Shown here: piece by piece, positions 9,101 through 58,400 of the stretch
How positions within the stretch are numbered: the stretch's first letter is position 1
How the letters are laid out: each line of letters opens with the position of its first letter
NCBI RefSeq assembly: GCF_026151205.1
Contig: NC_087078.1
Location: 434,001 to 498,000 of the forward strand
Reading direction: 5' to 3'
Source: Bolinopsis microptera
Taxonomy: Eukaryota > Ctenophora > Tentaculata > Lobata > Bolinopsidae
DNA length: 64,000 nucleotides
Translations under genes and position numbers: made by a program
The notes under the pieces: model-generated
Told to the model about the DNA's origin: nothing
The model's input: the letters and a program-made list of their open reading frames with translations, nothing else
Database searches by the model: none

Positions 9101-12100
9101 CAGAACTTTACGATTCTGATAAAGAAGTTTAAGAAGACGAACGAGGAATTGCTAAGTATTGTAATGAACTGTGATAAAGGAGACGAGATCTCTCTTGACA
9201 TGTGGGAGCAGGTAATAATAACAAGTTTATTTACTGAGAAAGTTGAAACAAGGATACAGTTTTACCCACCTGATATAAAGATGTAACGATTGTATTTATT
9301 GTTGCACGTATTAACTGTAACATGTAACTTGTTGTAAATACTGTTTCATTAACTAAGGTTCTACTCGCAGTTGTTACGGTATGTCCCTACTAAAGAAGAA
9401 ATACAGTTGCTGACTGATTTAGAAACAGATGAACAAACCCTATCCTCCCTAAGCAGAGCGGACCGGTACTTCCATGGTGCAGCCAGGTAACTGTCACCAT
9501 GGTTACACGTTGCCATTGTTACATGGCACACCTTACCACGGTTACATGGCGCAACTATATCTTTCAATTTGTCGTGGTCAGCAGTAACTTATAAGAATTA
9601 CATTTGCATAACTGCAACTGGCAGGGCCAAGCGAAATGTATTTCATGGATCTCAAAATAGTGGCACTGTAATTAAAGTGCTTCTTCATGGAAACTAAATA
9701 TTGTATCTTCAATATTCATGTTCTTACAAAAGCTTCCACTTCAGTATTTATCACTACGAAGAACGAATCAAAGCTGTAAATTTCAAGAAGAAATTTGATG
9801 AGCGGATAAAGAACATATCTCCCAAAATCAGGTGAGATTGGAGTTACCATGGTAACCATTGGCGAGCTATAAAATGTATCCTTGTGTTTGACAAATAGTG
9901 TACTATCTGCGTCATTTGTAGGTGACATTTCACAGTCACACTGTTGTCCAGTTATCCTCTGTTGTAGTAACATCTTGACCTATATTGTGGCCCTTAAAGC
10001 TATCTTTTTCTTATTTATTATTCTTATTATTTATAAGTTAAACTTAAGTAAAAAGTAAAAAGTATGTAGTAATAATAGCTCTTTGATTTCAACAGCTCAA
10101 GTTTTGACATTTCAAAGGCTTATAATATCTACAAGTATTTATATAACAAAGTTAGTGTAACCATGGAAACGTGTTGACACAACATATTATGAAGCTTAAC
10201 AAGCACATTCCAACTGCTTACTCCTTACTAAATACTTTAGTTTACTAATACGATTCTAGCAACTATTCTGATGAACTGAGACAGAGCTATTTGTCTATTT
10301 TATTGAATCAAGTTGGGACAAACTCTAAAGCGAGGGGGTTATCTGAATAGTAGTAGTATTATTGCGATTAAACTACATATTGATTATTAAAACTGCTCAA
10401 TTTCAGAGCACTAATAAAGGCTTCCACTGAAGTAACATGTAACCATATTAACATATTGTAACCATGGTAACATGTAACCATAGTAACATATTGATTATTA
10501 AAACCGCTCAATTTCAGAGCACTGATAAATGCTTCCACTGAAGTAACATGTAACCATGGTAACATGTTACCATAGTAACATATTGATTATTAAAACTGCT
10601 CAATTTCAGAGCACTGATAAAGGCTTCCACTGAAGTAACATGTAACCATGGTAACATGTAACCATGGTAACATGTAACCATAGTAACATATTAATTATTA
10701 AAACCGCTCAATTTCAGAGCACTGATAAAGGCTTCCACTGAAGTTGTTAAAAGTGAGAAGCTGAAAGAAATGTTAACTTTGATTCTAGGATTCGGCAACT
10801 ACTTTAACTTCGGAAAACGTGGTAAGCTCTAATTGAAATATTTGAAAAGTTTGACTTGCTCTTTGTAGGAACATATGGTCGTACCTGTAAATTGAAATGC
10901 AACGAGTTTAAAGTATTATATTTAGTATCTTACTGCATAAAGCGAGACGATATTATGTACATAATATATAATTTTAACAATACATTCCGCGAAAGCCGTG
11001 CGAGATATATTGCAACCTTTTTGGCTGGGTCGAATACTTTTATGGCCATTCGACCAGTATAAAGAAATAAGAAATTGGCCCGAGGAATAAATAATACAGG
11101 TGTTATCAACAACGCAAAATAAGTAAATATCGTTGTCTCTTGTAAGTTGTAACCACGGTAACATGTCTCTTGACATAATACATAAGTATTAAAAGTATTG
11201 TTAGGAACTGATAAAATAGCCAATATTCTAGGTTTTCTTCACTTCATTGTTACAATTTCAGCTACAATAACCTCCTTCTTTCAGGAAATGCCGTGGGATT
11301 CAAACTGGAGACCTTAACTAAAATATGCGATACAAAATCAGCTGATAATCAACTCACATTGCTAGTTTACATTGTGGAGACTGTGGAAATGATTGTGAGT
11401 ATATAATTATTGAATCTTTAACGTGTAACCATGGTAACATGTGGCCATGGTAACATGTAACCATAGTAACATGTAACCATGGTAACATGTAACCATAGTA
11501 ACATGTAACCATGGTAACGTTTAACCACAGGAGTTTGTAACCATGCTAACGTGTAACCATGGTAACATGAAACATTGGCAACATGAAGCCTTGGTAATTT
11601 GTTACCATGGTAACGGTTAACCACAGTAGCTTGTGACGTCATGGCAACATTTTCAGTTCCCAGATTTGGACACGTTTATGGATGAAATAGCGCATGTTCC
11701 TGTAGCAGCTAAAGTAGCCTTGGCGGAACTAAAAGCAGATGTTAATGATCTGCAAGGTGGTAACAGACTTCTGATCAAAGAAGTGGATCACATGCAGAAG
11801 AACCCGTCTCTTAAAGGTTACTTTAACCTTTGTAACCATAGTAACATGTAACCATGGTAACATGAACTTTAACCTTTGCTGTAACTAACACTACTCTTAA
11901 TATTTATTAGATTGCTTATCTTGCATCTTCTGATTTTCTTAAATTGTGGCCTGGAATCGTGAATTAATCCATTTATTCTTAATGCAAATTTTCCAAATTA
12001 TTTCTCCAAACCCCTAGTTTCCTAGTTAAGATATAGTGCGATACCTTAAAAGCTAAAATCTATTCCGCGTCACAGTAAATTATTTCTCGCCTATCCAGTA

Positions 12101-55400: not shown

Positions 55401-58400
55401 CTGATAACCTACAGAACTTATTCTGTTTTTAAAACAAATAATACTTATTTAGATTCTAGGAAGTGCGGTGAAAGTCAATCTGGTTTCAGATTTGTAGTGT
55501 TTTATTTATTAAACAACTATATGATCTGAGAGACCTTAATTGGTAATTCAGTAGTTTAGAAGTACTGCACGTCTTTACTTAGAAGAGATCTATCAACATC
55601 AATTATAGCTGAATCCCGGCAACTAATAAATATTATAAAGGAGTTGTCAGCACGTGCTAGGAGCTGGTTGTCGCTGATCCTAGCGTTAAATCCACCCTTC
55701 CTAAAAACCTGGTCAGTCCAGGATAAAGCTGTGGCGTTTGGGCGCCAAAGTAAAAAGTCGGGTAGTTCGGCACGTGCACCAAGTGTTACGATTACTCTGT
55801 AGAGATATCCGCACGTGCACCAACTGTTACGATTACTCAGTAAAGATATCTGCACGTGCAACATTAGTATCCTAGGTCACGTTACAAAGGTAGGATCAGA
55901 GCAAACTATTATTTTCCTAAATCAGCTTAACCATGATCACATAATCACGTCACAGAATTGCAGTTTAAGGCCTGACAGTGACTGGTAAATGCTATGATTT
56001 AAGAAGGCGAGGACTGAGGACTTTCAACGCTTCTTCTGTATAATGGTAACCATGGTCACGACGTCTGATGTCCCCGACGTTGCATTAACCTCAAGACTTC
56101 CAGTTAAACCTATTACCTAACCCCAACTAGAAGTACTAGAATACTAGATAGCAGTTTACCACAGACCGTTACCATGGTTACCACAGACCGTTATCATGGT
56201 TACCACAGGGTACAGACCACCTCGACTATCGACCAAATGTCAATCAATGTTTACATAACAGGGGCTACTAGCTAGACAAAGAAACGTTATATTTAGGCGG
56301 ATAAGTTGTGACTAGATTACCATTTATGGTATTGTTACCATGGGCACGTTATAACCTTATGTGGTAGTGACATGAAACATGGAAGAATAAAATGTCCGTT
56401 CCACAAGAGGAGGGAGCAGTCTTTTCGCATTGACTATAAAACGTAATTCTAACAGTTACCATGGTTACTTAGGGTATTGCAGTAATTCTAACAGTTACCA
56501 TGGTTACTTAGGGTATTGCAGTAATTCTAACAGTTACCATGGTTACTTATGGTATTGCAGTAATTCTAACAGTTACCATGGTTACTTAGGGTATTGCAGT
56601 AATTCTAACAGTTACCATGGTTACTTAGGGTATTGCAGTAATTCTAACAGTTACCATGATTACTTAGGGTATTGCAGTAATTCTAACAGTTACCATGTTT
56701 ACTTAGGGTATTGCAGTAATTCTAACAGTTACCATGGTTACTTAGGGTATTGCAGTAATTCTAACAGTTACCATGTTTACTTAGGGTATTGCAGTAATTA
56801 TAACAGTTACCATGGTTACTTAAGGTATTGTAGTAACTCTAACAGTTACCATGGTTACTTAGGGTATTGCAGTAATTCTAACAGTTATCATGGTTGCTTA
56901 GGGTATTGCAGTGATCCTAACAGTTACCATGGTTACTTAGGGTATTGCAGTAATCCTAACAGTTACCATGGTTACTCAGGGTATTGTAGTAATTCTGTCA
57001 GTTACCATGGTTACTCAGGGTATTGTAGTAATTCTAACGGTTACCATGGTAACTCAGGATATTGTAGTAATTCTAACAGTTACCATGGTGGCATGGTTAC
57101 TTGGGGGTATTGCAGTAATTCTAACAGTTAGCATGGTTACTTGGGGGTATTGCAGTAATTCTAACAGTTAGCATGGTTACTTAGGGTATTGCAGTAATTC
57201 TAACAGTTACCATGGTTACTCAGGGTATTGTAGTAATTCTAACAGTTACCATGGTTACTTAGGGTATTGCAGTAATTCTAACAGTTACCATGGTTACTTA
57301 TGGTATTGCAGTAATTCTAACAGTTACCATGGTTACTTAGGGTATTGCAGTAATTCTAACAGTTACCATGGTTACTTAGGGTATTGCAGTAATTCTAACA
57401 GTTACCATGATTACTTAGGGTATTGCAGTAATTCTAACAGTTACCATGTTTACTTAGGGTATTGCAGTAATTCTAACAGTTACCATGGTTACTTAGGGTA
57501 TTGCAGTAATTCTAACAGTTACCATGTTTACTTAGGGTATTGCAGTAATTATAACAGTTACCATGGTTACTTAAGGTATTGTAGTAACTCTAACAGTTAC
57601 CATGGTTACTTAGGGTATTGCAGTAATTCTAACAGTTATCATGGTTGCTTAGGGTATTGCAGTGATCCTAACAGTTACCATGGTTACTTAGGGTATTGCA
57701 GTAATCCTAACAGTTACCATGGTTACTCAGGGTATTGTAGTAATTCTGTCAGTTACCATGGTTACTCAGGGTATTGTAGTAATTCTAACGGTTACCATGG
57801 TAACTCAGGATATTGTAGTAATTCTAACAGTTACCATGGTGGCATGGTTACTTGGGGTATTGCAGTAATTCTAACAGTTAGCATGGTTACTTGGGGGTAT
57901 TGCAGTAATTCTAACAGTTAGCATGGTTACTTAGGGTATTGCAGTAATTCTAACAGTTACCATGGTTACTCAGGGTATTGTAGTAATTCTAACAGTTACC
58001 ATGGTTACTCAGGGTATTGTAGCAGTAACGCGTATCAATGTGACAATGGAAAGTGTGTTAATCACCTGCAGACTTGTGATGGGTACGACAACTGTGGGGA
58101 CGGTAGTGATGAGCGCGAGTGTGGTGAGTTGTTGCTATGGTTACTATGGTTACCTTAAAACTTAAGTTAATATCTTTGTTCCATACAAAAAAACTACTTT
58201 TGATAAACACAAGAAGCCACGTTTTCATCTGCAGTACAATTTAAATAGTTTGATCCCGATTGGTGGCTGTTAACAGACTGCTTTTTGATTGTTGCTATGG
58301 TAACTACTTGTTATACCCTGTATTATTATTCTCCGCAGGAAGACCCAACTTGATACACTCTTTAATAGAAGATATGCTATCTTGTGACTGCAGTGACAAC

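What the first reader, a model, noticed from the sequence alone, without database searches (positions are those of the whole stretch)
10370..58012. Tandem arrays built from exon-intron boundaries multiply splice sites across three unrelated genes
In the formin, integrin beta and Frizzled-related genes, repeat units repeatedly contain one splice site with its adjoining exon slice: acceptors before formin exons 10718, 12443 and 14317; integrin exons 3, 5, 8, 11, 14, 15 and 21; both LDLa exons; and donors after integrin exons 2, 7 and 8. The unit always stops short of the full exon, and the outermost copy is the real junction. That so many introns independently grew this way suggests a process targeted to, or selected at, exon borders: intron growth by junction duplication, a splicing-timing or alternative-splicing device, or R-loop-associated duplication. 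I know no standard repeat class defined by this property.
Basis: partly seen in the sequence, partly recalled or inferred. Interest (0 to 1): 0.95.

Follow-up and report, generated by a model that had tools for sequence, protein, structure and literature searches.

The report
Mirage-type minisatellites across splice junctions
Short stretches that run across exon edges have been copied in tandem, up to about 80 times, inside introns of several genes; this is the known "mirage" type of repeat described in lancelets, here in another animal, and a related event nearby appears to have made a new intron.

Summary
One more (33843) was missed.

The class is known: "mirages", minisatellite-like duplications of intron-exon boundaries in lancelet genes. 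Junction duplication was not found genome-wide: 13 of 54 junctions in the window (12 in their own intron), 1 of 228 in genes sampled elsewhere. The window lies in DNA rich in tandem arrays and in GTTAC/GTAAC words, like two other stretches I read. Within the window, junctions exceed its own array background about 2.5-fold (12-13 against 4.9 expected), but the window was picked for this pattern.

In several cases the copied boundary flanks a GTTAC tract. In a serine protease gene on contig C1 the same arrangement interrupts an exon that is continuous in its relatives: a probable intron gain. Best explanation: local tandem duplication in array-prone DNA, tolerated because extra copies fall inside the intron.

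The parts
10375..10744 (+). Array over the acceptor of formin exon 10718; unit = intron end + 27 nt of exon + GTAACC tract; 3 extra copies
   Evidence: exon by DAAM1 homology
12308..12492 (+). Duplicated acceptor of formin exon 12443: 20 nt intron + 50 nt exon on both sides of a 45-bp TGTAACCATGGTAACA tract
17733..20186 (+). Donor array after integrin exon ending 17757: 30-bp unit x 82, 25 nt of exon + GTAAT; frame stays open through the array
20318..20587 (+). Acceptor array of integrin exon 20565: 48-bp unit x 5.6, 23 nt of exon followed by GTTACTATAGCAAC in most copies
22346..22595 (+). Acceptor duplications of integrin exon 22553, with a GTTGCTATAGTAAC tract in the last spacer
23174..23656 (+). 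Donor array after integrin exon ending 23208: unit about 58-66 bp x 7.6, 35 nt of exon
23736..25606 (+). Acceptor array of integrin exon 25575: 48-bp unit x 39, 34 nt of exon
25730..26044 (+). Donor array after integrin exon ending 25753: 48-bp unit x 6.6; real copy reads GTTAGA, array consensus GTTATA
27509..32449 (+). Acceptor array of integrin exon 32398: 65-bp unit x 76, 52 nt of exon ending in TTTGTAACCA
33219..33326 (+). Acceptor array of integrin exon 33319: 23-bp unit x 4.7, about 8 nt of exon (GGTTACTA) joined to AGCAAC; below the 24-mer cut-off in its own intron
33585..33727 (+). Duplicated acceptor of integrin exon 33697: 21 nt intron + 31 nt exon on both sides of a 39-bp TTACCATGGTAAC tract
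33836..33932 (+). Donor array after exon ending 33843: 42-bp unit; also carries two copies of the acceptor junction of exon 33319
41240..41432 (+). Old, diverged duplication of the acceptor of the transmembrane exon 41367, copy 117 bp upstream (ends approximate)
54087..54796 (+). Acceptor array of LDLa exon 54784: 40-bp unit x 17.8, 10-13 nt of exon

Best explanation
These are mirage-type minisatellites. In array-prone, GTTAC/GTAAC-rich DNA, short tandem duplications (about 20-110 bp, often joined at or around a GTTAC/GTAAC palindromic tract) arise all along genes. Wholly intronic ones are harmless. Those that cross a splice junction are tolerated because the spliceosome can still use the outermost copy, so the extra copies become part of the intron; duplications reaching deep into or across an exon are lost by selection, which is why the unit stops short of the exon. 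The surviving copies then expand and contract like any minisatellite. When the same kind of event hits a CAG|G site inside an uninterrupted exon it can create an intron, the tract giving the 5' splice site and the duplicated exon piece the 3' one. Shown: the duplications, their boundaries, the regional array density, the tract joins, and the interruption present in one protease paralogue and absent from its relatives. Inferred: the order of events, use of the outermost copy in splicing, selection, and the break or replication mechanism.
For: Junction duplication tracks array density: window introns 55.6% of bp in duplicated 24-mers with 13 of 54 junctions hit; elsewhere 9.6% of intron bp (13 myosin loci) with 1 of 228 junctions hit (20 loci). 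Integrin paralogue L036 on C10, which shares three intron positions with the window gene, has no duplicated junction, nor have L034, L035 and L037. The GTTAC/GTAAC word occurs 12.4 per kb in the window, 11.7 and 7.7 in two other array-rich stretches, 3.8 elsewhere; it is in 21 of 32 window arrays of period 20 or more (3.2 expected from shuffled units), 22 of 50 on C1 (3.5), 9 of 24 on C7 498-548 kb (2.8), 3 of 39 elsewhere (1.9), 1 of 9 in L028/L029 (0.4). Junction copies flanking a tract: 12443, 33697, L029, and multi-copy forms 10718, 20565, L028. Two formin paralogues on C2 differ by one boundary copy (L028 three, L029 two). More boundary arrays in the other array-rich DNA: C1 33380, 31087 and 38805 (donors), C7 36340 (acceptor), tile coordinates. 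Protease P3: 260-nt interruption, 27-nt exon end repeated at its 3' end (24 of 27 identical), continuous in P1 and P2; trypsin profile split 1-82 / 85-220 against 1-220 in P2.
Against: The window's junction rate exceeds its own event-weighted intron background (12 or 13 against 4.9), and array edges cluster near its junctions; random placement alone does not predict this, though the window was chosen for the feature. Six of the 13 window cases (17757, 22553, 23208, 25575, 25753, 54784) and the m12 myosin array have no GTTAC/GTAAC word at the join (my reading). Tracts are flanked by direct repeats only somewhat more often than random intervals in the same DNA: 23 of 97, 12 of 38, 14 of 41 against 76 of 485, 36 of 190, 42 of 205 (4 and 1 tracts over 700 bp not examined). 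The word is also about twice as common as its controls elsewhere in the genome. No RNA or raw reads were available.
Confidence: 0.7

Rival explanations
1. A process aimed at splice junctions themselves (transcription, splicing or R-loop coupled) duplicates exon borders in this genome.
For: Window excess, 12-13 against 4.9 expected; first array edges concentrated at -25..+50 nt around window junctions (23 in 2768 against 4 in 2087 nt, p = 0.003); in the sample elsewhere the same tendency on the intron side is weak (16 in 10794 nt at 0-50 against 21 in 26123 at 50-400, p = 0.07); GTTAC/GTAAC words enriched at both intron ends there (about 10 per kb against 1.9).
Against: 1 of 228 junctions elsewhere, 2.7 expected. 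The word enrichment fits donor-like GTAA and branch-point-like TTAC/TAAC letters (my reading). Of 76 non-redundant TRF arrays in the window the great majority do not touch a tested junction.
Confidence: 0.12
2. A short palindromic GTTAC element behaves like an introner or MITE: it inserts with a target duplication and so copies splice sites or creates introns.
For: Tract flanked by duplicated boundary at 12443, 33697, L029, C1 31087 and in the P3 intron; exact GTTACCATGGTAAC 786 times in the genome against 1 for the reversed word.
Against: Target duplications of about 22 to 70 bp, not one fixed length; no common tract ends or length seen; some boundary arrays lack a tract.
Confidence: 0.12
3. 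The arrays are selected as splicing regulators (timing, unproductive splicing, decoy sites).
For: Copies in several arrays carry a splice signal; a palindromic intronic minisatellite (CeRep25B) is linked to alternative splicing in C. elegans (PMC4039745 passages).
Against: Integrin paralogues, one with three shared introns, lack such arrays. The L028/L029 copies differ in array size. In the donor array at 25753 most extra copies read GTTATA where the real site reads GTTAGA.
Confidence: 0.04
4. Assembly artefact.
For: Raw reads not seen; 81 whole units of the 30-bp array have only 8 different sequences.
Against: Same structure at independent loci with diverged copies, old and young, with paralogues differing in number; for lancelet mirages others argued from re-sequencing that they are real (PMC3902484 passage).
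Confidence: 0.02

Closest known systems
'Mirages' of lancelets (Adh3, globins BflGb6 and BflGb9, troponin C, PGBD5)
   Same: Minisatellite-like tandem duplications across an intron-exon boundary, at 5' and 3' boundaries; units 10-72 bp (Adh3) or 150-160 bp (globins); copy number unstable; many but not all copies carry AG/GT signals; proposed as a route to new introns (PMC3087553 and PMC3902484, passages seen).
   Different: Here up to about 80 copies, many boundaries in one gene, concentrated in array-rich DNA, and often joined at GTTAC/GTAAC tracts. Lancelet splicing was checked by RT-PCR; here it was not.
[quoted passage not shown]
   Same: P3 intron: duplicated exon end supplies the 3' splice site at CAG|G.
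   Different: In P3 the 5' splice site comes from the tract, not from the duplicate; the window arrays extend existing introns and carry one junction each.
Introners
   Same: Splice sites can be recruited from a target duplication (PMC9860276 passages).
   Different: Where introners have target duplications these are reported as 3-9 bp, and the element is a family of similar introns; here about 22-70 bp and no common element seen.
Variable internal tandem repeats at exon-intron boundaries in human segmental duplications
   Same: Minisatellite expansion at the boundary may form novel introns (PMC2812944 passages).
   Different: There the repeat is often retained in some transcripts; not tested here.

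Membership tests
Mirage minisatellites | Tandem repeat unit spans an exon-intron boundary | tested here: met
   12 of 54 window junctions with copies in their own intron
Mirage minisatellites | Found at both 5' and 3' boundaries | tested here: met
   9 acceptors and 4 donors, (8 and 4 by own-intron copies)
Mirage minisatellites | Unit length in the reported range of 10-160 bp | tested here: met
   Copy spacing 23 to 182 bp, most 30 to 115; the 182 (22553) includes an extra tract
Mirage minisatellites | Copy number unstable between alleles | tested here: inconclusive
   No second haplotype of the integrin stretch found; formin paralogues L028 and L029 differ
Mirage minisatellites | Regular splicing not disturbed | not testable with these tools
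   No RNA data
Tandem genomic duplication introns | Duplicated exonic segment with AG|GT supplies both splice sites | tested here: not met
   P3: acceptor from the duplicate, donor from the tract. Of 109 introns compared (P3 included but set one base off there, mended: 21 of 24) no other has its exon end repeated at its intron end (12 of 24 at most)
Introners | Family of similar introns with short target duplications | tested here: inconclusive
   Variable 22-70 bp duplications and no shared ends in the cases read; no genome-wide search for intron families was made

The most novel reading that the evidence does not exclude
GTTAC/GTAAC palindromic tracts seed small duplications in exons and at exon edges across the array-rich parts of these chromosomes, and so act as a continuing intron-making process without a transposon: the tract brings a donor, the duplicated target brings the acceptor, and mirage arrays at old junctions are the by-product.
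Probability: 0.25. Interest if true: 0.85.

Novelty: new member of a known kind. Interest (0 to 1): 0.55.

Why it matters
The lancelet mirages led to a hypothetical model in which boundary repeats give rise to new introns. Here the same repeats occur at high density, with paralogues that differ in copy number and one gene that seems to have gained an intron by a closely related event. That makes a fresh test of how introns are born and grow possible in one genome, by comparing array-rich and array-poor regions, haplotypes and close species.

Tried and rejected
A defined transposon: not favoured, for lack of common ends and of a fixed target duplication in the cases read. Telomere-like origin of the tracts: the seven contig ends read (600 bases each) show no TTAGGG array (one single TTAGGG in L042). 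Intron-end duplication as a general sign of intron birth: of 109 introns none but P3 has its exon end repeated at its intron end (12 of 24 at most; the P3 acceptor was set one base off, mended). Kinase genes as a second sample: hits mostly single-exon, not used. m10/m11 paralogues: intron lengths differ, but the unaligned parts are not arrays in m10 and only partly in m11. The tract-sandwich scan gave only a modest excess over random intervals.

Rows dropped before counts: L028, L029 and L033 were left out of the 228 junctions (L028 and L029 because both have the duplicated acceptor and lie near the start of C2, L033 because array sequence had been read as an exon); adding the two duplicated acceptors of L028 and L029 would make 3 of about 230, p against the window 4e-8. 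With looser exon filters the myosin loci alone gave 2 of 159, the second (m6 8379) at a weak exon. The 228 use stricter filters on 20 loci. The event-weighted background elsewhere was computed on the myosin loci only. The tiles C7:498-548 kb and C1:402-452 kb were not put through the junction count.
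Full report
What the genome is. The window is C7:434001-498000 of an unnamed assembly of 264.65 Mb in 232 contigs. The ten large contigs whose lengths I saw are chromosome-sized, 16 to 26 Mb.

Exons. Integrin exons were set by alignment to integrin beta-1 (9b9j; E = 1.2e-87) and a spliced-alignment script, formin exons by DAAM1 (2j1d; 8.9e-33), one LDLa exon by Pfam. The script's tiny spurious exons were replaced by hand, and some terminal exons and the Frizzled-type exon were set by reading frame and splice signals only. 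This gave 54 junctions and 25 introns.

Observation. 13 of 54 junctions have a further copy of their junction 24-mer: 9 of 27 acceptors and 4 of 27 donors. For 12 the copies lie in their own intron; for acceptor 33319 they lie only in the next intron's donor array. The unit contains 10 to 52 nt of exon. Copy numbers reach 82 (30 bp), 76 (65 bp) and 39 (48 bp).

Background. In the same window 55.6% of intron bases are in duplicated 24-mers, but counting each array once the share is 9.05%, so 4.9 of 54 junctions would be expected; 13 gives p = 9e-4, 12 gives 0.003. Walking outward from exons, the first duplicated position lies within -25..+50 nt of the junction in 23 cases over 2768 nt at risk, against 4 over 2087 nt deeper in the intron. 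Both figures come from a window selected for the pattern and from only three genes, and introns without arrays weigh more in the deeper bins.

Sample elsewhere. Thirteen myosin-head loci chosen without regard to repeats and seven integrin and formin paralogues (L030-L032, L034-L037) gave 1 duplicated junction of 228: the donor of myosin locus m12 (40-bp unit, 31 nt of exon). The myosin introns have 9.6% of bp duplicated, 1.2% event-weighted, so 2.7 of 228 were expected. The difference from the window is large (13/54 against 1/228, p = 1.5e-9), but so is the difference in array density. Integrin paralogue L036, which shares three intron positions with the window gene, has no duplicated junction, nor do the other three integrin paralogues.

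Where arrays are dense. The window lies 434-498 kb from the start of C7. Two further stretches, C7:498-548 kb and C1:402-452 kb, have 45% and 35% of bases duplicated (window 35%). Of the 49 GTTACCATGGTAAC sites listed on C1, 29 lie in the first 1 Mb of 26.2 Mb, 17 of them in one cluster; the call lists only the first places of the genome. That these regions are subtelomeric is an inference, and no telomere repeat array was seen at the seven contig ends read.

GTTAC tracts. GTTAC/GTAAC words are 8 to 11 times commoner in the window than three control word pairs of the same composition (about twice elsewhere), and arrays of period 20 or more contain one in 21 of 32 cases (3.2 expected); elsewhere 3 of 39 (1.9 expected). 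In 7 of the 13 boundary cases such a word lies at the join between the exon slice and what follows (in some copies only for 20565); at the window's own word density about 3 would be expected (p = 0.012; joins judged by me; test). In 12443, 33697 and L029 a single extra boundary copy and the real one flank such a tract. The words also sit near donors and about 10-25 nt before acceptors in the sample elsewhere, where they look like donor and branch-point letters.

Same structure outside the window. Two formin paralogues on C2 (9-15 kb and 460-466 kb) share a duplicated acceptor around an AGTAACC tract, with three copies in one and two in the other. In the C1 stretch donors are duplicated at tile positions 33380 (4 copies), 31087 and 38805; in the C7 stretch an acceptor-like boundary is repeated up to 36340. 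These four were found by looking for tracts and are not an unbiased count; their exons are by reading frame and sushi-domain resemblance only.

A probable new intron. Three sushi-trypsin genes lie in the C1 stretch. P1 and P2 have an uninterrupted trypsin exon. P3 is interrupted by 260 nt (C1:441866-442125) that begin CAG|GTACTAGTTACC, carry 17 GTTAC words, and end with a copy (24 of 27 identical) of the last 27 nt of the upstream exon, with CAG|GCC following. Pfam trypsin is split 1-82 and 85-220 in P3 and whole in P2. Among the eight matches of the P2 query in the genome, six run unbroken across the site (P1, P2 and four distant ones of 32-35% identity); the seventh starts just past it, the eighth is P3. 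Gain in P3 is the simplest reading; splicing itself was not observed.

Known kind. [quoted passage not shown] PMC3902484, passage). The founding paper (Canestro 2002) is cited there and was not seen. The window arrays meet the sequence features of that class. My searches listed no mirage report outside lancelets, apart from human boundary repeats (PMC2812944 passages); those searches cover only the open-licence library, and their listings were capped.

Mechanism. The simplest account is ordinary minisatellite birth in unstable DNA plus selection: copies that cross a junction are hidden in the intron, copies that reach further are removed. Whether junctions are also hit more often than chance is open: yes by about 2.5-fold in this selected window, no in the sample elsewhere.

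Noticed in passing
window 3170-5246 (- strand): Alpha-tubulin-like gene with a first intron; recognised by eye from the translation, no database call.
   Followed up: no
window 1275-1778 (-) and 6363-6872 (+): Two precursor-like reading frames with repeated FFFKP/FFFRP-type motifs next to basic cleavage sites, possible neuropeptide precursors (by eye).
   Followed up: no
window 36358-36520 and 41367-41509: Two alternative-looking transmembrane/cytoplasmic end exons behind the integrin gene; the second reads like a normal integrin beta tail (by eye).
   Followed up: no
window 33836-33932: The donor array carries two copies of the acceptor junction of the preceding exon 33319 (copies at 33871 and 33913), as if moved by template switching.
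   Followed up: partly
window 17614-20265: The 30-bp donor array stays open as one 884-aa frame; 81 whole units have only 8 different sequences.
   Followed up: partly
whole window; G000: The palindrome GTTACCATGGTAAC (786 in the genome, reversed word 1) resembles the RFX X-box; the resemblance is recalled and was not tested.
   Followed up: partly
L023-L027 (C1:402001-452000), about 26-41 kb into the tile: Sushi-domain and sushi-trypsin genes in which several sushi modules look split mid-domain at different points, some by introns that begin near GTTAC tracts: possible further intron gains, by eye.
   Followed up: partly
L003 (C3:9151200-9160300), 2813-3286: Two similar neighbouring exons for the same part of a myosin head, looking like mutually exclusive exons.
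   Followed up: no
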